Below, in pieces: positions 5,926 to 22,735 of a DNA stretch of 64,000 nucleotides (the stretch's first letter is position 1; each line of letters starts with the position of its first letter). The DNA lies in NCBI RefSeq assembly GCF_000512895.1, contig NZ_CP007033.1, positions 1,537,001 to 1,601,000 of the forward strand, written 5' to 3'. This DNA is from Dehalobacter restrictus DSM 9455 (GTDB lineage Bacteria > Bacillota > Desulfitobacteriia > Desulfitobacteriales > Syntrophobotulaceae). Made by a program: the position numbers and the translations under genes. The notes beneath the pieces were generated by a model that saw nothing but the letters and a program-made list of their open reading frames with translations, was not told the DNA's origin and did no database searches.

Positions 5926-6585
5926 ATGCCTGCGAACCATCCGAAAAAACATTCGCATCATCAACCTAATCGGCACAATCACTCCACTCAGCATCAGCAA
6001 TCCTGCAACTGTGGCCATGACCATTCCCAGAAGACCGGCCATGCCGTTCATGTTCATGATGCTGAATCCTGTCCGGTCTGCAGTGGTTCGGAAACCATTA
6101 CGCCGGAAGAATACCTAAATAAAATTGAGGAAGCCGTAAATAAGCTCCCTCAAAATAAAACCAGGGACAGAATGCACCGGCTGATTGTCCTGACAGCCGG
6201 CACAGCCGCCTCGGCCGCTGAACACAAGGATACCATCCTGCTTCAAATCACAGAGGTATATCTGACGCTGCGCCTGGCGGAGGAATCCGGTCAAACGCTG
6301 GCTCCCGAGGACGCCCAACGTCTTTTCCGCGAACTTTCCGGGCAGGCCGGCCTTGCGCTTACTGCCAAATATGGTCTGGAAGGATTGACCAGGGTTGGCT
6401 TGGACGCAGACTCAAGCAGCACGCCGGGAACAGCCTCGCTTGTGTTTATTAGCTGCTATGCAATCGGCAAAGTATTGATGCAATATTTCAGGAAGCAAAA
6501 GGAAGGCTCCGCCTTGGCCGCTGAAGAAATCAAAGACTGCTTTCGGGCAGCGAAGGCCGAAGCAGAACGATTGGCACGAGAATAA
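5926..6585 (+). CDS. Hypothetical protein with His/Cys-rich N-terminus
   Basis: 219 residues, start ATG 5926 with AGAAAGGA upstream. The first 55 residues hold well over a dozen histidines plus CNCGHDH and CPVC, a likely metal-binding or metallochaperone-like tail. The remaining 150 residues are mainly helical and alanine-rich, with a glycine-containing segment (ALTAKYGLEGLTRVG, about 143-157) and one mildly hydrophobic stretch. I do not recognise a family for the folded part. It is a single gene converging on ylmH, with no metal gene beside it. Metal binding is inferred from composition only. Confidence 0.7.
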   Translation: MPANHPKKHSHHQPNRHNHSTQHQQSCNCGHDHSQKTGHAVHVHDAESCPVCSGSETITPEEYLNKIEEAVNKLPQNKTRDRMHRLIVLTAGTAASAAEHKDTILLQITEVYLTLRLAEESGQTLAPEDAQRLFRELSGQAGLALTAKYGLEGLTRVGLDADSSSTPGTASLVFISCYAIGKVLMQYFRKQKEGSALAAEEIKDCFRAAKAEAERLARE

Positions 6586-6614
6586 ATTTGGGTATTTATT
6601 TCAAGAGCGTTGTA

Positions 6615-7418
6615 CTAGACATACTTTTTAATCACGATGGACTGGCGGCCTTTTTTAGAAAGTCCGCCTACTTCCTGAAGCTTGATTTTTCCGAAGCCGC
6701 GCAGAGATAGCGTATCCCCTTCCGCAACTGTCTTATCTGTTTTGTCACATTCCAGCGAATTTAGCATGACCTTCCCGGATTCAACATATTCCCCCGCTTT
6801 GGTACGGCTTAAGTTAAAACCTGCCGCGACCACACTGTCCAGCCGTAATGAGGCTACGGTGTCTTTCAGCAGAAGAACTTTTTCTTCCGGTATTTGCAGC
6901 AATCCCGCAGAGATGATTGCTGTTTTTATTTTGACACGGCCAACTGATTCCAGATTGTTTATCAGGAACGGCAGGATTTCTTTCAGGACAATCAGATCAC
7001 AGCTTTTTTCTGTGACCAGAATGTCACCGACCGTTTCCCGTTTGATTCCTGCCCCCATCAAACTGCCTAGGAAATCCCGATGCGACAGGCCGCTGTCTGC
7101 AGGATATTCCGCCCGGATAAAAGCTAATGGGCAATATTCATCATCCTGAATGACCTGTTCGGGCTCCAAGTAGTCCGGAAAAAAGACCAATACGGTACGC
7201 TCAGCCCCTTCATAGCCTCCCCAGAAAAAGTGCCGGGATCTTCCGTCCGTAATAAGCATATTTTCGGCCAAAGACCGCTGCTGCTGATTGCAGAACCTTG
7301 TAAAGGTCGGAATATTCTTTTTCTCGGATTCTTCAAGCTTGTCAAGGACCCGGGCAAGCAGTAGCCTGCTTTCTTCATCCTGGGCATATTTTTTGACGAT
7401 TTCGTTTTTATTAATCAT
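6615..7418 (-). CDS. ylmH: YlmH-family S4 RNA-binding protein
   Basis: 267 residues matching the YlmH family. An N-terminal region of about 175 residues (FTRFCNQQQ, FFWGGYEGAERTVLVFFPDY, HRDFLGSLMGAGIKRETVGDI) is followed by a C-terminal S4 domain (LRLDSVVAAGFNLSRTKAGEYVESGKVMLN, about 190-220) that binds structured RNA. In other Firmicutes the gene lies in the ylm cell-division cluster and the protein is linked to rescue of stalled ribosomes. Here it is away from that cluster. The ATG at 7418 has AAAAGGA upstream. Confidence 0.9.
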   Translation of the reverse strand: MINKNEIVKKYAQDEESRLLLARVLDKLEESEKKNIPTFTRFCNQQQRSLAENMLITDGRSRHFFWGGYEGAERTVLVFFPDYLEPEQVIQDDEYCPLAFIRAEYPADSGLSHRDFLGSLMGAGIKRETVGDILVTEKSCDLIVLKEILPFLINNLESVGRVKIKTAIISAGLLQIPEEKVLLLKDTVASLRLDSVVAAGFNLSRTKAGEYVESGKVMLNSLECDKTDKTVAEGDTLSLRGFGKIKLQEVGGLSKKGRQSIVIKKYV

Positions 7419-7503
7419 GCAGCATCCTTTTAAGAACTTTTAAACAATTATTTCTTATATATCTATTGTACTGATTTTCAACGTATTCAATTAGTTTGAT
7501 GGC

Positions 7504-8265
7504 TCACCTGATGATCAGTAATGCGTTACCGAGTGTAATACAGCCGAGTGCGATCACAATGCTCAACAGCGTGCCGACAAGATATTTTTCGGCGAAGTCC
7601 CGGTCGTTTAGCTGACTGAAACGCGCTAAACTTTTTGCTGCGAGCACAAAGCCAATGGCCCCGAGCTGCCCGTTCAGCCACAGTGTCAGTGTAATAAGCC
7701 GTTCCAGCACGCCGATCAGATACCCGCTTTTAATTAACTCGTTGGTATCCTCCTGATTCTGAAAATGAAATAAGATCAGGATCTTTTTGATAAAAATAGC
7801 GGCAGGCGACAGGCACAAGATATACAACAAGATGAGCACGGCACCGTTGTATAATTCCGGCCCCGTTAAATCCACCGAAATCCTGCCTAAGACACTTTCT
7901 CCGAGTCCGCTTGTTTCTGTAAGATAAAAGCCGCAGGCCAGGATAATCAGGATATGTAAAAACTGGTCGGCAACAAACAGGAAAAAATCTGTTTTTGCCA
8001 AGTCCGGCTGTTTGGCTGCATAATATTGAAGCAGACGGGTTCTGGAATAATCGATAGACAGGTGGCTTAGAACGATGATCAGCACTGCAAATATCATGTT
8101 ATTAACAGGTCCAAACCAGATTAGAGCCAGAATCAGAAGGACGGCATAGATCAGACAATGCCAGAGAAAGTACTTGATCTGGTCACGTTTTTTGGTAGCC
8201 ATTGCCGTGCTTTGCAGAATGAAGTCTCCAAGCAGATGGGCAATTATCGGCAGCAAAAAATTCAT
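7504..8265 (-). CDS. DUF3307 family membrane protein
   Basis: 253 residues with six or so hydrophobic segments and the DUF3307 opening LLPIIAHLLGDFILQS, with the conserved HLxxDFxLQ pattern. A second conserved region reads HLSIDYSR. Its function is unknown. It follows the SatD-family gene by three bases and has a GAGAGGTG ribosome site overlapping that gene's end, so the two are co-translated. The DUF3307-SatD pairing is common in Firmicutes, suggesting a joint role. Confidence 0.85.
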   Translation of the reverse strand: MNFLLPIIAHLLGDFILQSTAMATKKRDQIKYFLWHCLIYAVLLILALIWFGPVNNMIFAVLIIVLSHLSIDYSRTRLLQYYAAKQPDLAKTDFFLFVADQFLHILIILACGFYLTETSGLGESVLGRISVDLTGPELYNGAVLILLYILCLSPAAIFIKKILILFHFQNQEDTNELIKSGYLIGVLERLITLTLWLNGQLGAIGFVLAAKSLARFSQLNDRDFAEKYLVGTLLSIVIALGCITLGNALLIIR

Positions 8266-8268
8266 AAC

Positions 8269-9126
8269 TCACCTCTCAAAGGTTCGATGGATCATCAGCA
8301 GGGTAACAATATCAATTTCACGAATCTCTGGAATGTTGGCAGATTTGATCACGTTGTCAACATTCTGTCTGGATGTATTGGTAATATTTGATATTTTTCC
8401 TGATAATCCTTTTTTATAGACCTCTTTCAGGGTCAATTTATTTTGAAGTGACTCCGAAGCAAAAATGGCGAAAGGTTCAATATGCTCGCTGTTAATCCAG
8501 GATACGTCATCGATTGAAGCCGCTTTGATTCGTGTTTTTTGATAATAGCTCTGGCGGTACCTTTCCGAAACAAGACCTGGCAGCCGCTTGAATGCAGGCA
8601 GATCCATTGCCTTTTGGTCAAACAGCGGCTGAATGACTTCGGTCAGCAATAAGACGTTGTTTTGATACAGACTCTGTTTCCTGACGAGCAGATCGGATGT
8701 TTTGAGCAAGGCATTAATGACCAGATCGTTTTCGTGCTTGGCGTTGAATAATAAGTCATAGCCGCTGCGTTCCGGGATTCTTAAAATTGCCTCCCTGGCC
8801 AGATGGTAAGCTGGTCCGTCCTGTTCCGTTGAAGTCCCGTCCGGAATCCGGACATCCCAGTCCCCTACCCCAAATCCGCAGCGAATCGGTAGAGGAGCCA
8901 GCAGCATTTTTAAAAGACGAACATAGAGTAATGCGGCTGTCGGTGTTTTGAACAGTCCTTGTACTTCGTCACCTGCGCTGAAGATGACGGCAAATTCCTG
9001 CGATCTTTGAAAGATGCTGTTCAGGACATTCAGGCACATCTTCATATATCGTTGAATCTGTTCACGGTCACTTTTGGGAAGCTTTTTCGAGTTTACCAGA
9101 TCGGCAATCACAGCAGTGTAGAGCAT
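8269..9126 (-). CDS. SatD family protein
   Basis: 285 residues starting MLYTAVIADLVNSKKL, the SatD hallmark, followed by FSAGDEVQGLF and GFGVGDW-type motifs that resemble a nucleotide-cyclase-like fold. The C-terminal 60 residues (LKEVYKKGLSGKISNITNTS) look like a helix-turn-helix. SatD was named from an acid-tolerance locus in streptococci, and its biochemical role is not established. The start has GAGGTGG four bases upstream. It is the first gene of the two-gene unit with the DUF3307 gene. Confidence 0.85.
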   Translation of the reverse strand: MLYTAVIADLVNSKKLPKSDREQIQRYMKMCLNVLNSIFQRSQEFAVIFSAGDEVQGLFKTPTAALLYVRLLKMLLAPLPIRCGFGVGDWDVRIPDGTSTEQDGPAYHLAREAILRIPERSGYDLLFNAKHENDLVINALLKTSDLLVRKQSLYQNNVLLLTEVIQPLFDQKAMDLPAFKRLPGLVSERYRQSYYQKTRIKAASIDDVSWINSEHIEPFAIFASESLQNKLTLKEVYKKGLSGKISNITNTSRQNVDNVIKSANIPEIREIDIVTLLMIHRTFER

Positions 9127-9165
9127 AGAACCACCTCTAGTGTTATTATAACAGCATTAAAATTT

Positions 9166-9192
9166 AAAGCAATCTGTTTTGATTGCTTTTTG
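9166..9192. terminator. Hairpin upstream of the SatD gene
   Basis: AAAGCAATC (9166-9174) pairs with GATTGCTTT (9181-9189) and is followed by TTG on the plus strand. It may be a remnant terminator; orientation is uncertain. Confidence 0.4.
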
Positions 9193-9281
9193 TATTTACA
9201 ACCTAAATTAGTTGCTTGCTTTCTTTACCTTTAGTATACGACTAGGACCTCTGAAAGAGTCTTTTCTTACGAAATACTCTC

Positions 9282-9341
9282 CTAGCCCTGTCTTAACACA
9301 GCAGATACCAGGATATTTGAATCAACAAATACTCGTAAGGC
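9282..9341 (-). pseudogene. Remnant of a PIN-domain (VapC-like) toxin gene
   Basis: Twenty codons read LRVFVDSNILVSAVLRQG then stop. This is the first strand and first acidic residue (VDxNILxS) of a PIN ribonuclease. Nothing recognisable of the rest of the domain follows in any frame, and no antitoxin gene is adjacent, so it is a fragment. Confidence 0.4.
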
Positions 9342-9532
9342 ATTACTTTTTTCCCTTTCCCCGTATGATATATTGTCAAGCCTTTCAATGTATCTTCGAT
9401 ACAAAAAATTTCTAAATTTGAAGAATTTGTATGCGCTTACAAATTCTTCGGTAAATGAAATAATTGGCTTAAACAGGTAAGGAATCTGGACCTGGATTAA
9501 ATTGATAATTAATATGCTGACGATTATAAAAT

Positions 9533-9580
9533 AAGCTTCTTTTGTTAGATTCAACTTGTGAATTTAGTCAAAAGAAGCTT
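9533..9580 (-). terminator. Terminator of the CWB2 gene
   Basis: Twelve-base arms AAGCTTCTTTTG (9533-9544) and CAAAAGAAGCTT (9569-9580). On the minus strand the hairpin is followed by ATTTTAT, 27 bases after the CWB2 stop codon. Confidence 0.6.
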
Positions 9581-9606
9581 TAATTTAATATAAAGTGACT
9601 AATAGG

Positions 9607-10473
9607 TTAGAATATCACTGTATAATTCTCATCAATTCCTGGTTTGTTAAGCTGCAAATTCCCGTTGGTATTACCCGTATTTTGCAGCAGCTCCTTAACT
9701 ACGCCATCGGATACAACATCTGTCTGACCTATGGCAACAACGTTCGGGAGAATTTGGTTTTGCAGCAAGTATTCTTTCGTCTTGTCCACGGCAGTATCAT
9801 TAACCAGAAAAACAGGAGAATGAGTTTTAGCGGCCAGTGCGGAAGCAGCTAAAGCATCCGGATAATTTGAACCGGTAGCAACATAAACGGTACTTAACTT
9901 GAGCTCTTTGGCAAAATTGCTGATTACCGCCATATTGGTATCATAGCGATCATTCCCCTGCAATCGTTTGACATGGGGGAAATTGCCGGCTACCCCGTCG
10001 CTGACAACATCATCGCTACCGACAATATAAGCGGCAGTGATGTTTTTATTTTTGATGTAGTCTTTTACGCTTTGAGGACATTTGTACGTCATGGTTAAGA
10101 GCACGGGCATGCCTTTTTGGGTTGCGATCGAAGAAATTGAAATAGCATCTGGAAAATTGAGTCCTGTTGCTACGCAAACCTCACCATTGAAATCGAGCTT
10201 CTCTGCAATTTTTACGGAAGTATCAAACCGGTCTTCACCTGATATACGCGTACAGCTTAGACCTATAGCTTTAAGCTCTTTTTCAACGTTTTCCGAGATG
10301 GCTCCCGTACCACCGATAATTACAGCATTCTTGGCCTCAAGTCTTTGAATTTCCTTTTTTGTACTACTGAGCAAATTCTCTTTGATGTTTAACAAAATCG
10401 GGCAATTGTATTTTTGCGATAACGGCGCGGCACAGAGCGCATCAATTTTTTCATAAGAAAATCGTAATTGCAC
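9607..10473 (-). pseudogene. 5'-truncated cell-wall-binding repeat 2 (CWB2) protein
   Basis: The 288-residue frame holds two complete and one partial CWB2 (PF04122) repeats: DALCAAPLSQKYNCPIL, then NAVIIGGTGAIS..GEDRFDTSVKIAEKL, CVATGLNFPDAIS, GNDRYDTNMAV and VYVATGSNYPDALAASALAAK. CWB2 domains hold proteins on anionic wall polymers outside the membrane. Here the signal peptide, any effector domain and the first half of the first repeat are missing: the frame opens inside a repeat and an in-frame stop lies nine bases upstream of the GTG at 10473. No good ribosome site is seen. The IS1182 element lies 70 bases upstream but does not itself cut the domain. Confidence 0.7.
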
Positions 10474-10581
10474 ACTTTCTTTTCAGTGCTCACGGTTCAA
10501 GAATCTCCCGTAATTTTAGATTTTAGATAAAGAGGGGATAAAACGAGGCCACTGAAAAAGTGGTACCTGAACCTCAAAAGC

Positions 10582-10627
10582 AAAAGAGCTGGAATTACGA
10601 AGAAAGAAGTAATTCCAGCTCTTTTTT
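10582..10627 (+). terminator. Terminator inside the left end of IS1182
   Basis: A 17-bp perfect stem (arms 10582-10598 and 10609-10625) with a 10-base loop ends in a T-run. It lies between the left repeat and the transposase start and would shield the transposase from outside transcription. Confidence 0.85.
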
Positions 10628-10669
10628 GATACAATTAAATAGAGAAAAAACTTCAGCGCAGGTAATCAT

Positions 10670-12138
10670 ATGATAAAGAAACAAACAAGCCTGGCCTTAA
10701 GTCCCTATATGGGCATATACGATTTGATCATACCCAAAGATAATTTATTGCGACAGATGAACGAATTAGTGGATTTTAATTTTATCTACGACGAGTTGGT
10801 TAATGTCTATTGTCAAAATAATGGACGAGGTGCAATAGATCCAGTTCGGATGTTCAAATACCTTTTACTAAAAAGCATTTTCGACATATCAGATGTTGAT
10901 GTGGTGGAGCGATCAAAATACGATATGTCATTTAAATATTTTCTTGATATGACACCGGAAGAAGAAGTCATTGACCCCAGTTCACTGACCAAGTTCAGAA
11001 AGCTACGGCTCAAAGATACAAACCTGCTGGATCTATTGATCCAAAAAACAGTTGGAATCGCTTTGGAAAAAGGTATTATAAAAAGCAAAGCCATCATAGT
11101 AGATTCTACCCATACCCAGGCAAGATACAATCAAAAATCACCTCGGGAGCATTTAATAGAATGTTCTAAGAGGCTACGCAAAGCCGTCTATGCCATAGAT
11201 GATAAGATGAAAGAGCAATTCCCGGCAAAAGTTAATAATGGCTTACTGGAAGATGAACTAGCGTATTGCCAAAAACTAATAACGGTCATTGAAAACGCAG
11301 AACACATTTCCGGTTACCCTGCTGTAAGAGAAAAACTAAATATGCTAAAAGAAGTGGTTGAGGATGACCATGAACAATTAGCCTTAATGTCAAAGGATGC
11401 CGATGCCAAAATGGGTCATAAAACAGCGGATACAGCCTTTTTCGGATATAAAACTCATCTAGCCATGACGGAAGAACGGATCATAACTGCCGCAGTTGTT
11501 ACATCAGGAGAAAAACATGACGGGAAACAACTTCAGGCCCTGGTAGAAAAAAGTGAACAAGCAGGAATTGAAGTTACAGATATCATTGGTGATGCAGCCT
11601 ATTCCGAAAAAGATAACATCGTATATACGAAAGAAAATAACATCAATCTGGTTTCTAAGCTGAGTAAAACAGTGACACATCAACAATCGAACCGAATAAA
11701 TCCCAATATATTTGAATTTAATAAAGATTGTCAGATGTATGTTTGTCAGGCTGGACATATGAGCTTTAAAAAGACAAGCACCCGGCCTAAAAACATGCTA
11801 AAGACGGTACAGGAACGGTAGAATCCTACTTATTCGACGTGGAAAAATGCAAAATCTGCCCCTATAAAGCAGGCTGCTATAAAGACGGGGCAAAAACCAA
11901 AACATATTCTGTAACGATAAAACACCACACGCATGAAGAACAGGCCATATTTCAGGATAGCGAATATTTCAAAGAAAAGTCAAAGGAACGTTACAAAATT
12001 GAGGCAAAAAACAGCGAGCTAAAACATAGACATGGGTATGGTGTTGCATCTGCTTCAGGCATATTTGGTATGCAGCTACAAGCGGCGACCACAATATTTG
12101 CTGTTAATTTAAAAAGAATTATAACTTTAATGGGTTAA
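10670..12138 (+). pseudogene. IS1182-family transposase, frameshifted
   Basis: The first frame (10670-11821, 383 residues) has the IS1182 N-terminal region (DPVRMFKYLLLKSIFDISD) and DDE core motifs (IVDSTHTQ, DAAYSEKDN). It ends out of frame after KNMLK. The rest (from about 11800 to 12138) continues in the -1 frame as DGTGTVESYLFDVEKCKICPY, with C-terminal HGYGVASASGIFGMQLQAA. A one-base loss near 11802-11806 (CTAAAGACGG) explains the break. An A-AAG sequence lies at the spot, but IS1182 transposases are normally one frame, so I call it inactivated. IS66 is inserted directly behind its stop codon. Confidence 0.85.
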
Positions 12139-15800: not shown

Positions 15801-16084
15801 ATTATACTCCTTTCTAATTTATACAGGCAAATTTTTCCTTCCAATACTAATAGACAACATAGATTACTTTTTGCAACACATATTTAGGATTTTTTTACTC
15901 CTGAGACTGTCCCTAAAACGGCAACGGCGCCAATTGGCACTTTTCGTATCAATATTATTTTCAACTGGAGCTAACCGACTACCCCCCTTTAAATTTAGAC
16001 ATAAATCAAAAATGCAAAGCAGGCAAGAAAGAATTAAGTTCTAAAATATATTTCCAGACTGGTTGCTAAACCCTTACTATTTTT

Positions 16085-16124
16085 CTTTTTACTCATTGAA
16101 TTAGCTAATTCGATGAGTAAAAAG
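16085..16124. promoter_or_regulatory. Forty-base near-perfect palindrome before the SH3 remnant
   Basis: Arms 16085-16096 and 16113-16124 (CTTTTTACTCAT and complement) continue as GAATTA-GC-TAATTC inside, with one mismatch pair. The right arm runs into the AAGGAGG of the following start codon, so the RNA hairpin would partly cover that ribosome site. The rest of the 15801-16136 gap holds only AT-rich upstream DNA. Confidence 0.55.
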
Positions 16125-16136
16125 GAGGATACTGTA

Positions 16137-16322
16137 ATGAGTACAAATGTTTATGGAGGCCCAGGAAACAAAGCGTATGCCGTGGTGGGATATCTCGATG
16201 CACTCGATCCCTACACTGTCCTATGGGAGGAATACGGATGGAAATTTATTGAATACCCATCGGGATCCAAAAAAAAAGAGAGCGTATCTGCCAGGTTGAG
16301 CATCTACCAGGACCTTAGATAA
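16137..16322 (+). pseudogene. Remnant of an SH3-repeat protein (N-terminus)
   Basis: Sixty-one codons from ATG 16137 with a strong AAGGAGG site. NVYGGPGNKAYAVVGYL and GWKFIEYPSGSKKK match the first SH3 repeat of the large protein at 17906, including its start without a signal peptide. A nine-A run then shifts the frame: one A fewer continues as KKKRAYLPG, the expected end of a repeat, but is soon stopped. It is the stub of a second copy of the large SH3 protein. Confidence 0.7.
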
Positions 16323-16384: not shown

Positions 16385-16782
16385 TTAGCCTGTATCTCCC
16401 ATTTGTTGCAAGACATTCTTTAACTTTTGTGGAAATGGCACTCCCATTTTAGCAATATTTTCAAGTATACTGATCCCTTCATTAGACAAATAGAACATAA
16501 TCAGCATCGTTCTTAGAGTACTTCCTGAACCGATAATGTATTGATTAATAATGTTTCCCAAGGCAATTAGGGCAAATATCAATATTTTTTTACATATACC
16601 TTTAAATCCGATATTACTCGATACTTTCTTATCAAAAATCGCCAATAGGACACCAGTTACATAATCAAATGCTACAAATGCGACCAGCGCATAAACCAGG
16701 GAATCAAGCTCACCTAGCAACCATCCGAAAACCCCGCCTACAGTGCAATCATAATTTTGAGATAATTTAAAAGCAAATCCAC
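16385..16782 (-). pseudogene. Phage holin (toxin-secretion / lysis holin family), frameshifted
   Basis: Reading from the GTG at 16782, with GGGGGGAT upstream, gives DLLLNYLKIMIAL and then TAG at 16738-16740. With one extra G the frame continues as VGGVFGWLLGELDSLVYALVAFVAFDYVTGVLLAIFDKK, the first two membrane segments of the PF05105-type holin, and remains open to 16385. Internally initiated protein from the TTG at 16720 would lack the first segment. Such holins open the membrane for endolysins, or for large toxins without signal peptides as in Clostridioides difficile TcdE. Confidence 0.75.
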
Positions 16783-16783
16783 A

Positions 16784-17062
16784 TTAATCCCCCCAATGCC
16801 CTTGTTGTCCAAACCATTTTGCTAATTTCTTCAGAGCCCGTTTTTTTGTCTTATTAACTGCTTGTCTGCTGATTTCATTAATAGCTGCGGTTTCTGCTAC
16901 GGTATAGACCAATAGATAGATCTTTTCGACAACAGATAATTCCGATTCCGTCAGCAGATGATCTATCCCTGTTAATTCCAGTTCAAAATGGGTGTCCAAC
17001 GTAACCAATGCAGCTTCAGCATAATAAAGTTGCAACTCCGTTTTATGCTTCGGCAAGTACAA
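16784..17062 (-). CDS. Small protein upstream of the holin, unrecognised
   Basis: About 85-92 residues. The 5' end is unsure because the frame runs into DNA that reads as an SH3 remnant on the other strand; a junction near 17020-17050 is likely. The protein is charged and helical (LLTESELSVVEKIYLLVYTVAETAAINEISRQAVNKTKKRALKKLAKWF). Its stop is one base before the holin start, so the two belonged to one phage-type unit. Confidence 0.45.
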   Translation of the reverse strand: MYLPKHKTELQLYYAEAALVTLDTHFELELTGIDHLLTESELSVVEKIYLLVYTVAETAAINEISRQAVNKTKKRALKKLAKWFGQQGHWGD

Positions 17063-17545: not shown

Positions 17546-17905
17546 ACCATAACAAGCGACATAGTGTTGCAACATTTCCAAAAGTGCAAGTTGACATCAA
17601 CCCAATGTAACGTAAATGGCGCTTCATTATAATTAGCAGACAATCTATGATTGATCTCTCTTCCGTTACAGACTTTTCTTCTGTCTTCAAATTTCCGAGT
17701 TTTTGCCGAGTTTTTGCCGTTTAACAAGTTGCTGAGGAAATATAATCAAGCTGAAGGGAGAAATATTACAGAACGGCTAAACTATTTTCTTGATTTTAGG
17801 GCCTTAGAAAAAAGTTACCAAGCAAGTTTACGAATATCCATATTTCTTCTCTTTGCTAATTAATCAGCTGGTTCAAAAAATTTTTAAAAACAAAGGAGAG
17901 ATATT
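17546..17905. other. Intergenic region with an 11-bp tandem repeat
   Basis: This 360-bp AT-rich stretch precedes the large SH3 protein. CCGAGTTTTTG is repeated directly at 17695-17705 and 17706-17716. I see no gene, and no -35/-10 pair I would trust. Confidence 0.5.
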
Positions 17906-20900
17906 ATGTCAGTAAAAGTAAATACCGCAAGCGCTTCAACTGTATATCATGGACCAAGTTCCAGCATTTATGCCTCTGTGGGCAGTGTTGGCATAGAGCA
18001 AGTCGAGGTCTTCGCCGTGGAAAAAAACTGGTTCTATATCGAGTACTACACCGGAGCCACTACCAGGAAAAGAGGCTATGTCCCGTACAACACAATCACG
18101 AATCCGGCTACTGTAGCGGCCAGCGTCCCGACCCGGTCTTTAACCGGCTATGCCGATGTTTCAACCCTAAACATTACGGTATGCACAGGTCCGGGAACCT
18201 CAACCACTTATCCATTACCCGGGAATGTCTATGCCACGGAAGGTTTCACGCGTTTTAATGAAACCAGTGGGAGCTACACGTATATTGAATACAGTACATC
18301 GTCTGGCACCAAACGTGGATACGCCTTGACCAGTCAACTTGCAAGCAGGAACAGGGGGGTGCTTGCGAACGTTTCATCATCTGCTACCATTTATACCGGT
18401 CCCCGCAGCAATTACGTAACCGGGGGAGGTGTTTACTCCGGAGAATACGTAGTTATCCTGGAAAAAGACGCTTCTTCCTGGTACTATATTGAATTTAACT
18501 CAACTTCCGGTAGAAAACGCGGTTACGTCGATCAAAACTTAATTACGCCATATTCTTCGACCAGCGGACTTGGATCACTGAAAACATTTCAAAATGCAGC
18601 TTCCGTCCAACAGAATGTGTATGTTTATGCCGGACCAAATTTAGGTTTTGCCTCTGTTGGCTCTTTATCCGCTGATGAGACTGTCTTTTGGATTGAGGGT
18701 GTTACTGCGGAGTCTGCCTATTCTTTTATCGAGTACACAACCTCCTCCGGTCAAAAACGGGGCTATGTGTCGGCCAGCGGTCTTCAGACTCTCACTGGAG
18801 CTGTCGTTTCGGTTGCAAACGCAGACACTGTTTATCTTGGACCAAGTGACATAAACTACGCGTCTGTAGGAAGTGTCAGCCAGAATGATCCGGTCCTGGT
18901 TCTTGGCAAGGAAAAATCGTGGTTCTATATTCATTACCCCACATCAAGCAATAAGAAAAGAGGCTATGTTCCATACGACTGTTTGAATGATCCCTCTACC
19001 GTTGCCGCAGGTGTCTCGGAGAGGACGTTTACGGGTTGTGCCGATGCAACCAACCAGGATCTGACGGTCTATACCGGACCGTCGAACAATTACGCCGCTT
19101 CTGGAACTGTCTATTCTGGTGAAGGGGTCACCCGCTTTAATGAAAGTCAAAACGGCTTCACCTATATTGAATTTAGCTCCCCCTCCGGAACGAAAAGAGG
19201 TTATGTCGATACAACGCAATTAGCAGGCAGGAACAGAGGCGTTCTGGCTGAAGTCACTTCCACTCCCGGCGCTGTCTATTGCGGCCCGGATACAACCTAT
19301 TTCTTAAGCGGGGGGCTCTCACTTGAAGAATTCGTCGTCATCCTGGAAAGAGACATTTCTTCTATTTATCCGACACAATGGTATCACATCGAATACAATA
19401 CTGCATCAGGACGGAAAAGAGGCTATGTCAGTCAAAATTGCCTGACTGCTGCAGGCTCTCTGAATTCTGTTCCGGCATTGCGAACAGGTACCGGGTTAGC
19501 AAAAGCTGTCGGGAACCAAACCGTATATACCGGACCAAATACCAATTTTACAACAATCGGCACAATTTTTGATAACGAAAGAGTAAGCATACTAAGCAGC
19601 GCCTCGGTAGAATCAGCCTATGCTTACGTCGAGTACAACACAGGTGGTTCGGCAAGCAAGCGCGGCTATGTATCGACAGGAGTCCTTCAGTCGACTTCAG
19701 TGACCCTGCCAACTATTTCCGTTGCCAATGTCGTAGAAGGAAGTTATGGTACCAGCGGCAACAATCGTTCCCTTAACTATTACAAAATTGGCAGCGGCAG
19801 CAATGTTCTGGCGGCGGTATTCGCAGTTCACGGATTTGAAGATGCCTGGGCGGCTGACGGCGAGGAGCTGGTCAAAATCGCTAAAACGACGATTGAAGAA
19901 CTTGCTGCGGAAAACCTCTCCGCATGGACAATCTACGTTATTCCCTGCGCCAATCCGGATGGAATTCTGGACGGTTGGACAAATAACGGTCCTGGCCGGG
20001 CAACAGTCAACGCAGGTAAGGATATTAACCGTTCCTTTCCGTATACCAATAATAATGACTTTTATCCCTATACTAACAGCCGGAATTTTAACGGCTCATT
20101 GGCACTGGGTTCAGTTGAATCGCTTGCCCTTAGCCAAGCCTTGCTGCAATGGCAAAGCGAAGCCCAAACCATGGTTTTATTGGATGTTCACGGCTGGCTC
20201 AATGAATCTCTCGGGGATACTACGATCGGGCAATATTTCCAGACTCAGTTCGGCTCAACTTTTAGTCTTAGCACATTATCTAGTTCCGCCAAAGGCTATG
20301 TAAGTCTTTGGGGACAAAATAAAGGCATGCGCGCGGCGTTAATTGAGCTTCCCTTCCCCAGCTCATCACAAGATATCATTGACAGGGATTTTGCCGGGAA
20401 ATTCGTTTCAGCTACGTGCAATATGCTGAACGCTATCGCTTCAAGTGTGGCCGTCACGGGCGTCACGGTATCTCCCAGCCAAGTAACGCTTGCTTACAAT
20501 CAGACCCAGCAGCTTACTGCGACCGTGTCCCCGTCCGACGCAGCGAATAAGGCAGTAATATGGTCAAGCAACAATACAAATGTGGCAACAGTGAACAGTA
20601 CTGGCCTAGTAACCGCAGGCGCAGCTTCAGGAACCGCAACGATCACTGTTCGGACTGTAGACGGCAGTTTTGCAGCAAACTCAATGGTGACCGTTGCCTC
20701 AGCATCTATTCCTGTTACAGGTGTAAGCATGAGCCCAACATCTGTCACTTTGGATGCGGGAGATACCCAACAGCTAACAGCTACCGTCGTTCCAGCCAAT
20801 GCGACTAACAAGGCGGTTACTTGGTCGTCTAGTAATACAAGTATTGCAACTGTCAACAGTAATGGTCTGGTAACTGCACAGGCAACTGGATCAGTAACTA

Positions 20901-21598
20901 TTACCGTAACAACAAATAGCGGAGGATTCACAGCAACAACGGCGATAACCGTATCTAATAATGGAGGCGTCCCTGTAGGATACAAAACCTATAAAGTGGG
21001 TGCTACGTTACCAAGCGGCGGTCCATTTGCTGGCTGGGCAGTAACTCAAGGATTTAATGACAAAGAAACAAATAACAAAGGACATCTGGGTTACGATATT
21101 GCCCTTGGAAGCACTGGCACCCCTGTAAAGCCCATATTCGGCGGAACTGTAGCATTTGTTCGACCTGATAATTCAACTGCGAACGGGAGAATCGTTGTCA
21201 TCGAGCATAATTTAACTGGAGTCCGGACATTCTATTCCTCTTACTCACATTTAAACTCTACGAGTGTTAGTGCCGGAGACTCTGTGACAACCAGTACGAC
21301 AATAGGCACTATGGGCGGTTCTGCAAGTGGCAGTAATTCAGGTGTCCCCATTCACGTGCACCTTTGTACCTATACTAAGAGCAGTTATGCTACTGATCCA
21401 ATGGGCTATTGCAGCGCTACCGATCCAAACACCGGCTATCACCCGTTAAAGTTTGAACAAGCTGCCGGAAGCTACTACAACGACTATTACTATGGCGGGG
21501 ATACGAGTAAGTTCCCTCGTTGCGGCGGATGTTGTTTTTATGATCCATTTGGGGTCGTCAGCACCGACGGTCAAATCATTGAAGCTTTTCACCCATAA
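17906..21598 (+). CDS. Giant SH3-repeat / M14 carboxypeptidase / Big_2 / M23 peptidase protein
   Basis: 1230 residues, start ATG 17906 with AAAGGAGAG seven bases before it. Residues 1-600 are eight SH3-like repeats, each ending in (K)RGY, arranged as two copies of a four-repeat block (1-4 match 5-8). Residues about 610-845 are an M14-type carboxypeptidase domain with zinc and catalytic signatures HGFED, KDINRSFP, LDVHGW and IELPFP. Residues 847-1020 hold two Big_2 Ig-like domains. Residues 1024-1200 are an M23 LytM-type endopeptidase with GHLGYDIA, YSHL and HVHL, so both enzymes look complete. All domains act on the cell wall, yet there is no signal peptide or lipobox. Export may use the holin-like route suggested by the adjacent holin relic, or lysis. 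A terminator follows. Confidence 0.85.
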   Translation: MSVKVNTASASTVYHGPSSSIYASVGSVGIEQVEVFAVEKNWFYIEYYTGATTRKRGYVPYNTITNPATVAASVPTRSLTGYADVSTLNITVCTGPGTSTTYPLPGNVYATEGFTRFNETSGSYTYIEYSTSSGTKRGYALTSQLASRNRGVLANVSSSATIYTGPRSNYVTGGGVYSGEYVVILEKDASSWYYIEFNSTSGRKRGYVDQNLITPYSSTSGLGSLKTFQNAASVQQNVYVYAGPNLGFASVGSLSADETVFWIEGVTAESAYSFIEYTTSSGQKRGYVSASGLQTLTGAVVSVANADTVYLGPSDINYASVGSVSQNDPVLVLGKEKSWFYIHYPTSSNKKRGYVPYDCLNDPSTVAAGVSERTFTGCADATNQDLTVYTGPSNNYAASGTVYSGEGVTRFNESQNGFTYIEFSSPSGTKRGYVDTTQLAGRNRGVLAEVTSTPGAVYCGPDTTYFLSGGLSLEEFVVILERDISSIYPTQWYHIEYNTASGRKRGYVSQNCLTAAGSLNSVPALRTGTGLAKAVGNQTVYTGPNTNFTTIGTIFDNERVSILSSASVESAYAYVEYNTGGSASKRGYVSTGVLQSTSVTLPTISVANVVEGSYGTSGNNRSLNYYKIGSGSNVLAAVFAVHGFEDAWAADGEELVKIAKTTIEELAAENLSAWTIYVIPCANPDGILDGWTNNGPGRATVNAGKDINRSFPYTNNNDFYPYTNSRNFNGSLALGSVESLALSQALLQWQSEAQTMVLLDVHGWLNESLGDTTIGQYFQTQFGSTFSLSTLSSSAKGYVSLWGQNKGMRAALIELPFPSSSQDIIDRDFAGKFVSATCNMLNAIASSVAVTGVTVSPSQVTLAYNQTQQLTATVSPSDAANKAVIWSSNNTNVATVNSTGLVTAGAASGTATITVRTVDGSFAANSMVTVASASIPVTGVSMSPTSVTLDAGDTQQLTATVVPANATNKAVTWSSSNTSIATVNSNGLVTAQATGSVTITVTTNSGGFTATTAITVSNNGGVPVGYKTYKVGATLPSGGPFAGWAVTQGFNDKETNNKGHLGYDIALGSTGTPVKPIFGGTVAFVRPDNSTANGRIVVIEHNLTGVRTFYSSYSHLNSTSVSAGDSVTTSTTIGTMGGSASGSNSGVPIHVHLCTYTKSSYATDPMGYCSATDPNTGYHPLKFEQAAGSYYNDYYYGGDTSKFPRCGGCCFYDPFGVVSTDGQIIEAFHP

Positions 21599-21611: not shown

Positions 21612-21648
21612 AAAGAACTGGCGAGGCAACTCGCCAGTTCTTTGTTTT
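21612..21648. terminator. Bidirectional terminator
   Basis: A 14-bp stem (AAAGAACTGGCGAG and complement, loop GCAA) lies between the convergent SH3-protein and lipoprotein genes and has T-rich tails both ways. Confidence 0.85.
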
Positions 21649-21667: not shown

Positions 21668-22735
21668 TTAGTCGATCGGGCTTGTAAGTAACATTTTGGA
21701 CACATGATCTGTAGTATCAAACTCCAATTTAAATATTAGCCCTCCGTCACTGTACCAAATGTTTTTAAGACCGTTTTCGTCATACCAGATATACCCGGCA
21801 ACTTCAGTATACACTGCCTTTCCATATAAAGTCTGGATTTTACCGTTATCCCCAGTCTTGCTTTCGTTTTTCTCATCAGGAAACTTGGCGATGGCCGACT
21901 CCAATGAATCACCCACTTTAATACCCCTTATGAAACTAAAATCTGGGCGAGTGATTTCTATGCTGCAAAAAGAGTAGCTCTTACCTGCACCTTCAGGATA
22001 GTAAAAAGACACTACTGTATCCGCGTATTTGCGTTTCATTGTCACATCGATACGTCCACCTGTTTCTGGCACCATTTCCACATCAACCACAGGGCCGAAA
22101 AGCGTATCTGCTTTCTCTATCGTTAAGTCCGAAGTAAAACCGATAATCTCTCTCGTAAAAAATGGCAGTTTGTACATTACCTGCTTCGTTTGGTCTGCAG
22201 AAACCTTTTTAAAAGATGTTGACAGCTGGGTTTGCTTCTGCTGGTCATAGGGAAGTAATTGGAGGTTATTATAGGTAATCTGCAGGTATCCATTATTGAT
22301 GACAAGAGTACCCTCTACGTGCTGAAGCTTATTTGAGGATTCTTTCTCCCCTGCGGAATAGGAGGCTTTGCCATCCGAGTCCTTCTGGGCATACGTACTG
22401 AATCCTCCTTGTGTAATTTTTCCTTCTTCATCATATTCCACAACAAAAAGATGGAAATCAAACCCGTTTTCCGTTTCATTATAGACTTGGATTTGAGCAA
22501 TGTTTCTGTCACCGTATGCATACTGCCAGACTCCTGTGAATTTTTCAACAGGTTCAACTGATTCTGCTGGTACCGTTGGTCCAGATTCCTCGGATGACTC
22601 CGATATCGCAGGTGAGTTTGACGGTGACATTGTACCAGGAACGGAGTTGGTGGTTGGGGTACAAGCAGCAAAAAGTAGAATTAAAAGCGCTAAGATCATT
22701 ATTAGTTGGATAAGGGATTGAGATTGTTTTTTCAT
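21668..22735 (-). CDS. Lipoprotein of unknown function
   Basis: 355 residues with a type II signal peptide (LLILLFAAC, lipid-modified Cys at about residue 25), then a Ser/Pro/Glu-rich linker of about 40 residues. The folded part begins at FTGVWQYAYGDRN, a lipocalin-like GVW/Y opening, and ends with a region (PDFSFIRGIKVGDSLESAIAKFPDEK) that resembles repeats of predicted surface lipoproteins. It should sit on the outer face of the membrane. A good promoter (22855-22883) lies about 115 bases upstream. Confidence 0.7.
   Translation of the reverse strand: MKKQSQSLIQLIMILALLILLFAACTPTTNSVPGTMSPSNSPAISESSEESGPTVPAESVEPVEKFTGVWQYAYGDRNIAQIQVYNETENGFDFHLFVVEYDEEGKITQGGFSTYAQKDSDGKASYSAGEKESSNKLQHVEGTLVINNGYLQITYNNLQLLPYDQQKQTQLSTSFKKVSADQTKQVMYKLPFFTREIIGFTSDLTIEKADTLFGPVVDVEMVPETGGRIDVTMKRKYADTVVSFYYPEGAGKSYSFCSIEITRPDFSFIRGIKVGDSLESAIAKFPDEKNESKTGDNGKIQTLYGKAVYTEVAGYIWYDENGLKNIWYSDGGLIFKLEFDTTDHVSKMLLTSPID

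What the first reader, a model, noticed from the sequence alone, without database searches (positions are those of the whole stretch)
17906..21598. Two-enzyme wall protein: 8x SH3, M14 carboxypeptidase, 2x Big_2, M23, with no signal peptide
An apparently complete M14 peptidase and an M23 endopeptidase are joined in one chain with wall-binding SH3 repeats, yet the start, fixed by a strong ribosome site, carries no export signal. Joint endopeptidase and carboxypeptidase action on peptidoglycan is plausible. A phage holin relic lies close by, as in holin-dependent export of clostridial toxins. It may be a released lysin or predation weapon, or a domesticated phage product.
Basis: partly seen in the sequence, partly recalled or inferred. 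Interest (0 to 1): 0.8.

Follow-up and report, generated by a model that had tools for sequence, protein, structure and literature searches.

The report
Leaderless wall-cutting bacteriocin, orphaned export module
This gene encodes a large cell-wall-cutting protein, probably a weapon against other bacteria, that belongs to a sigma-factor-plus-holin module built like the loci clostridia use to make and release toxins and bacteriocins, except that here the sigma and holin genes beside it are broken.

Summary
In detail: one 1230-aa ORF (17906-21598) with eight SH3 repeats, M14, two Big_2 and M23 domains, catalytic residues in place, no signal peptide, and a holin relic nearby. An intact relative in a Syntrophomonas MAG (L007) reads, all on one strand, sigma factor, TcdE-type holin (PF05105/TIGR01593), leaderless SH3x8-M14 effector. 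The sigma has the SRQ mark of group-5 (TcdR/BotR/UviA) sigmas. Effectors and sigma genes of L007 and its relatives, and this gene, carry TTTACA/G-N16-CTYYTT promoters; the window's is the only TTTACR-N16-CTCTTT site in its genome. SH3 + M14, no leader, group-5 sigma and holin is the published description of the C. perfringens Bcn5 bacteriocins. Across relatives the N-terminal SH3x8-M14 part is kept while the C-terminus changes (M23; an unnamed domain; PG-binding + Ntox44). Best reading: a Bcn5-like, wall-degrading bacteriocin with exchangeable C-termini, released by holin. In this genome the holin is frameshifted and the sigma truncated, so the gene is intact (dN/dS 0.21) but orphaned. Killing, export and activity are inferred, not shown. 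New variant of a known kind.

The parts
17906..21598 (+). Leaderless effector P0001, 1230 aa: SH3x8 - M14 - Big_2x2 - M23
   Evidence: 92% identical full-length ortholog in a second genome of the genus, dN/dS 0.21
17827..17854 (+). Group-5-sigma-type promoter TTTACG-N16-CTCTTT, 51 nt before the ATG
   Evidence: only TTTACR-N16-CTCTTT site in the 2.94-Mb genome; same site before the G001 ortholog
17893..17898 (+). Ribosome-binding site AAGGAG
   Evidence: read from sequence
17906..18805 (+). First block of four SH3 repeats (aa 1-300)
18806..19705 (+). Second block of four SH3 repeats (aa 301-600), a copy of the first block's order
19706..20440 (+). M14 zinc carboxypeptidase domain (aa 601-845); H642/E645/H762, N708-R709, E814
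20450..20938 (+). Two Big_2 domains (about aa 849-1011)
21080..21367 (+). M23 endopeptidase domain (aa 1059-1154); H1060, D1064, H1115, HxH 1150-1152
21612..21643 (+). Hairpin, likely terminator, shared with the convergent gene
   Evidence: read from sequence
16385..16720 (-). TcdE-type holin relic (PF05105/TIGR01593); N-terminal coding (to about 16782) is out of frame
   Evidence: only PF05105 match in the genome
16784..17062 (-). Group-5-like sigma relic: C-terminal part only (homology 16811-17041), SRQ motif kept
16137..16322 (+). N-terminal fragment of a second SH3-M14 effector (intact in G001 = L028:9987-12392)
16063..16090 (+). Variant promoter TTGCTA-N16-CTTTTT before that fragment
21668..22735 (-). 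Putative lipoprotein kept beside P0001 in both genomes (69% identical); candidate immunity protein (inference only)

Best explanation
P0001 is the effector of a Bcn5-like bacteriocin module. In the intact form a group-5 (TcdR/UviA-type) sigma factor transcribes itself, the holin coupled to it and one or more leaderless wall hydrolases from TTTACA-N16-CTCTTT promoters. The folded protein leaves through, or after opening by, the TcdE-type holin, either by lysis of a subpopulation or without lysis. It binds target peptidoglycan by its eight SH3 repeats, and M14 (stem-peptide carboxypeptidase, MpaA-like) and M23 (cross-bridge or stem endopeptidase) cut it. The C-terminal domain is exchangeable between relatives. 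In this genome sigma and holin are broken, so P0001 is an intact orphan that may be silent. Shown: anatomy, promoters, the sigma-holin-effector order in a relative, the broken holin and sigma here, selection on P0001. Inferred: enzyme activity, export, killing, immunity.
For: L007: sigma 6553-7122, holin 7123-7530, effector 7674-11309, one strand, 72% identical to P0001 over residues 3-935. Coupled sigma-holin pairs recur in L049 and L138. The holin scores 90 bits to TIGR01593 'toxin secretion/phage lysis holin' (cut-off 40.2). SRQ in sigma region 4.2 and -35 TTTACA are the published group-5 marks (PMC4031146). Of 10 strict promoter sites in 309 kb, 8 lie just upstream of module genes. SH3+M14, no leader, UviA-type sigma and holin describe Bcn5 bacteriocins (PMC4459074, PMC9527704). 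The C-terminus varies: M23, unnamed, or PG_binding+Ntox44. The M23 domain matches lysostaphin, LytM and zoocin A. dN/dS 0.21.
Against: Sigma and holin are broken here, and G001 has no SRQ sigma and only a prophage holin. No direct sequence match to Bcn5 was found: P0001 residues 1-845 have no plasmid hit at E 1e-3, and I did not check that the collection holds a Bcn5 plasmid. Bcn5's holin UviB is of another family (BhlA). No immunity gene is shown. No activity or export data; the structure model failed.
Confidence: 0.68

Rival explanations
1. Self-lysis or release enzyme: P0001 is the module's own endolysin, crossing the membrane through the holin to open the producer's wall for other cargo or for programmed lysis, as in type 10 secretion.
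For: Two wall hydrolases with a holin; holin-endolysin pairs serve release in T10SS (PMC9527704). A small leaderless SH3-M23 gene with the same promoter lies in L007 (L007:3048-3944).
Against: Much larger than known release endolysins; the C-terminus is swapped, including an Ntox44 toxin domain in a relative; eight SH3 repeats and Big_2 suit an outside-acting protein better.
Confidence: 0.15
2. Dead relic: the whole island is decaying and P0001 has no function in this organism, whatever its ancestor did.
For: Sigma truncated, holin frameshifted, second effector truncated at 16322, transposase genes at 10.6-14.6 kb.
Against: P0001 is open over 1230 codons, with dN/dS 0.12-0.25 in every domain against G001; promoter and RBS are kept.
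Confidence: 0.12
3. Domesticated phage tail lysin or endolysin.
For: The holin family is of phage type; Big_2 domains match phage tail proteins.
Against: SH3+M14 part has no match in phage records or IMG/VR; no phage structural genes nearby; Big_2 matches are promiscuous.
Confidence: 0.03
4. Cytosolic peptidoglycan-recycling enzyme, like MpaA.
For: No signal peptide; M14 domain.
Against: Eight SH3 repeats, M23 and Ig domains make sense only at a wall.
Confidence: 0.02

Closest known systems
Bcn5-family bacteriocins (C. perfringens pIP404 bcn with uviA, uviB; PMC9527704, PMC4459074)
   Same: Leaderless, SH3 plus M14 zinc carboxypeptidase, group-5-type sigma and holin beside it (in L007), variable C-terminus.
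   Different: Eight SH3 repeats instead of two; M23, or PG-binding plus Ntox44, instead of a hydrophobic C-terminus; TcdE-type PF05105 holin instead of BhlA-type UviB; no detectable direct sequence match in my searches; regulator and holin broken in this genome.
TcdR-TcdE toxin loci of clostridia (PMC4885068)
   Same: Group-5 sigma, TIGR01593 holin and a large leaderless effector under TTTACA promoters.
   Different: Cargo is a peptidoglycan hydrolase, not a host-acting toxin; found in non-pathogenic environmental anaerobes.
Lysostaphin/zoocin-type M23 bacteriolysins
   Same: M23 endopeptidase with a wall-binding domain.
   Different: Those are Sec-exported single-enzyme proteins (general knowledge); this has a second peptidase, eight SH3_3 repeats and no leader.
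Type 10 secretion (holin plus peptidoglycan hydrolase)
   Same: Holin paired with a leaderless wall hydrolase.
   Different: Gram-positive, sigma-controlled; the hydrolase looks like the cargo rather than the door-opener.

Membership tests
Group-5 (TcdR/BotR/UviA) sigma module | SRQ motif in sigma region 4.2 | tested here: met
   ISRQ in L007, L029, L049, L138, L084, L085 and in the window fragment; the divergent L028 sigma reads THQ
Group-5 (TcdR/BotR/UviA) sigma module | -35 TTTACA promoter before effector and sigma genes | tested here: met
   the window has TTTACG, one base off
Group-5 (TcdR/BotR/UviA) sigma module | Intact sigma gene upstream of the effector | tested here: not met
   Met in L007; in the window only a C-terminal fragment remains, on the opposite strand
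Group-5 (TcdR/BotR/UviA) sigma module | Functional exchange with TcdR/BotR in transcription | not testable with these tools
   Needs in vitro transcription
Bcn5 bacteriocin | Leaderless protein with SH3b and M14 domains | tested here: met
Bcn5 bacteriocin | Beside UviA-type sigma and a holin | tested here: met
   Intact in L007, relic in window
Bcn5 bacteriocin | BhlA-family holin (UviB) | tested here: not met
   Holin is PF05105/TIGR01593
Bcn5 bacteriocin | Direct sequence homology to Bcn5 | tested here: inconclusive
   No hit in plasmids at 1e-3; presence of a Bcn5 plasmid in the collection not checked
Bcn5 bacteriocin | SOS induction and killing of indicator strains | not testable with these tools
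   Needs culture experiments
TcdE-type holin | Above the TIGR01593 cut-off | tested here: met
   90.4 bits against 40.2
TcdE-type holin | Intact reading frame in the window | tested here: not met
   N-terminus out of frame
M14 metallocarboxypeptidase | HxxE...H zinc ligands, NR pair, catalytic Glu | tested here: met
   Invariant in six relatives; aligned with carboxypeptidases A/B over the zinc and NR region
M14 metallocarboxypeptidase | M14 fold | tested here: inconclusive
   Model pLDDT 42
M23 endopeptidase | HxxxD and HxH zinc/catalytic motifs | tested here: met
Phage endolysin / tail lysin | Relatives in phages or phage genes around it | tested here: not met

The most novel reading that the evidence does not exclude
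A polymorphic interbacterial weapon class: a shared leaderless SH3x8-M14 wall-penetrating chassis with exchangeable C-terminal killing domains (M23, Ntox44 and others), controlled by group-5 sigma factors and released by TcdE-type holins in environmental Bacillota. The sigma/holin arrangement of clostridial toxin loci would then be one branch of an older bacteriocin system.
Probability: 0.35. Interest if true: 0.78.

Novelty: new variant of a known kind. Interest (0 to 1): 0.6.

Why it matters
It takes the sigma-plus-holin logic of clostridial toxin and bacteriocin loci into harmless dechlorinating and syntrophic anaerobes, with a cargo whose activity (peptidoglycan cutting) is easy to assay. 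That gives a safe model for two open questions: how holins export large folded leaderless proteins, and where the toxin-locus sigma/holin pair came from. The C-terminal exchange, including an Ntox44 domain, suggests a modular antibacterial family not described in these groups in the papers I could search.

Tried and rejected
AlphaFold of M14 with a two-row alignment gave pLDDT 42, so no fold search was run. tblastn of SH3+M14 in plasmids and phages found nothing; whole P0001 hits there were Big_2 only. Viral-contig scans found no relative. Sigma hits in G053 and G027 were ordinary ECF sigmas. PF05105 holins in G001, G003 and G108 sit in prophages and are not part of the module. A palindrome after the -10 of some effector promoters is weak before P0001 and was not used as evidence.

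Full report
WHAT IS THERE. The ORF at 17906-21598 (+) encodes 1230 aa. Pfam finds SH3_3, M14, two Big_2 and M23. Counting the KRGY motif gives eight SH3 repeats at regular spacing, in two blocks of four. All M14 catalytic residues (H642, E645, N708, R709, H762, E814) are invariant in six relatives, and the M23 motifs align with solved enzymes, among them lysostaphin, LytM and zoocin A. There is no signal peptide, no in-frame upstream extension, and relatives start at the same SH3 repeat.

THE CONTROL AND EXPORT MODULE. A 71-72% identical relative was found in a Syntrophomonas MAG (L007). Its neighbourhood is intact: sigma factor (6553-7122), PF05105 holin (7123-7530) and effector (7674-11309), all on one strand. 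The same coupled sigma-holin pair occurs in a same-order genome (L049) and in a more distant one (L138). In L138 a second strict promoter site starts just after the holin stop, where an effector would begin, but no effector follows on that short contig. The module's holins are 76-82% identical to each other and 55-58% to the nearest prophage holin compared. In the window the holin N-terminus is out of frame and only the sigma's C-terminus remains. They lie on the opposite strand to P0001, and it is the only PF05105 match in the genome.

PROMOTERS. Upstream of P0001 lies TTTACG-N16-CTCTTT, 51 nt before the ATG. The same form (TTTACA-N16-CTCTTT, CTCCTT or CTTTTT) precedes the L007 effector, the L007 sigma, a small leaderless SH3-M23 gene in L007, an effector fragment in G001, the G049 M14 effector and the sigmas of the G049 and G265 sigma-holin pairs. 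Of ten strict sites in 309 kb of loci, eight are in these places. From the other two I estimate 0.003 expected by chance in eight 100-nt upstream windows. In the window's genome the P0001 site is the only TTTACR-N16-CTCTTT match. The -35 TTTACA and an SRQ motif in region 4.2 are the published marks of group-5 sigmas (PMC4031146), and the sigmas here carry ISRQ. Two plasmid sigmas with SRQ (L084, L085) also sit beside TTTACA-N16-CTCTTT sites; in L084 such sites precede a BhlA-like holin gene (18-base spacer there) and a PG-binding protein gene. A divergent sigma in G001 reads THQ instead of SRQ, and its own promoter and that of the adjacent M14 effector read TTGCTA-N16-CTTTTT. This matched change of reader and site is suggestive, from one case.

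WHAT IT IS LIKE. Leaderless, SH3b plus M14, UviA-type sigma plus holin is how the Bcn5 bacteriocins of C. perfringens are described (PMC9527704, PMC4459074), and those papers note a variable C-terminus and propose a peptidoglycan-cutting action. Here the N-terminal SH3x8-M14 part is kept (72% to L007, 46-48% to L095) while the C-terminus differs: M23 in the two genomes of the window's genus, an unassigned 286-aa stretch in L007, PG_binding_1 plus Ntox44 in L095. Between the window and G001, synonymous divergence rises along the gene (0.06 SH3, 0.28 M14 and Big_2, 0.66 M23) with dN/dS 0.12-0.25 in every part: selected, and mosaic. I did not find direct sequence homology to Bcn5, and the holin family differs, so I call it Bcn5-like, not a Bcn5 member.

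HOW IT MOST LIKELY WORKS. Shown: anatomy, promoters, gene order in the relative, decay here. Inferred: the sigma switches on effector and holin; the holin lets the folded protein out; SH3 repeats bind target wall; M14 trims stem peptides and M23 cuts cross-links; the C-terminus sets the killing mode. The lipoprotein gene beside P0001 (21668-22735, kept in G001 at 69% identity) and DUF5050 lipoproteins beside effectors in L028, L029 and L095 are candidate immunity genes, by position only.

PRESENT STATE. In this genome the gene is intact but its sigma and holin are not, so it may be silent; transcript or protein data would settle that. The M14 search hit 8 of 399 phylum genomes, most with a stand-alone M14, and the SRQ-type sigma search 18 of 399.

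Noticed in passing
L010/L030, L031, L035-L040 (genomes G014, G019, G022): Multi-copy leaderless proteins with an N-terminal M23 domain, SH3 repeats and varying C-termini (DUF4434, Amidase_6 and others), some next to about 190-aa membrane proteins whose C-terminus copies the effector's C-terminus; no holin or sigma match in the stretches read.
   Followed up: partly
L028:7828-8418 and promoters at L028:7835, L028:12388 (-), window:16063: A divergent sigma with THQ instead of SRQ, with its own and the neighbouring effector's promoter changed from TTTACA to TTGCTA: possible co-change of sigma and -35 box.
   Followed up: partly
L095:2987-6967: Relative of P0001 ending in PG_binding_1 plus Ntox44, a polymorphic-toxin domain.
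   Followed up: partly
L028:8574-9866, L029:13772-15040, L095:7080-8111: DUF5050 putative lipoproteins beside three effectors; candidate immunity genes.
   Followed up: no
L138:3474 (-): Strict group-5-type promoter directly after the holin with no effector following on the contig; looks like a lost effector.
   Followed up: no
window:17008-17484: ORF weakly related (26 bits) to a secreted 182-aa protein in G001 (L027:13259-13807) but lacking its signal peptide; it overlaps the truncated end of the sigma relic, so the same break probably cut both genes.
   Followed up: partly
window:9607-10473: ORF matching a G001 gene that has a signal peptide (L028:13936-14577) but lacking that N-terminus, next to transposase genes.
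   Followed up: no
window:17855-17880 and other effector promoters: Near-palindrome (TTGAATTAGCTAATTCAA type) after the -10 box of several effector promoters but not sigma promoters; weak before P0001.
   Followed up: partly
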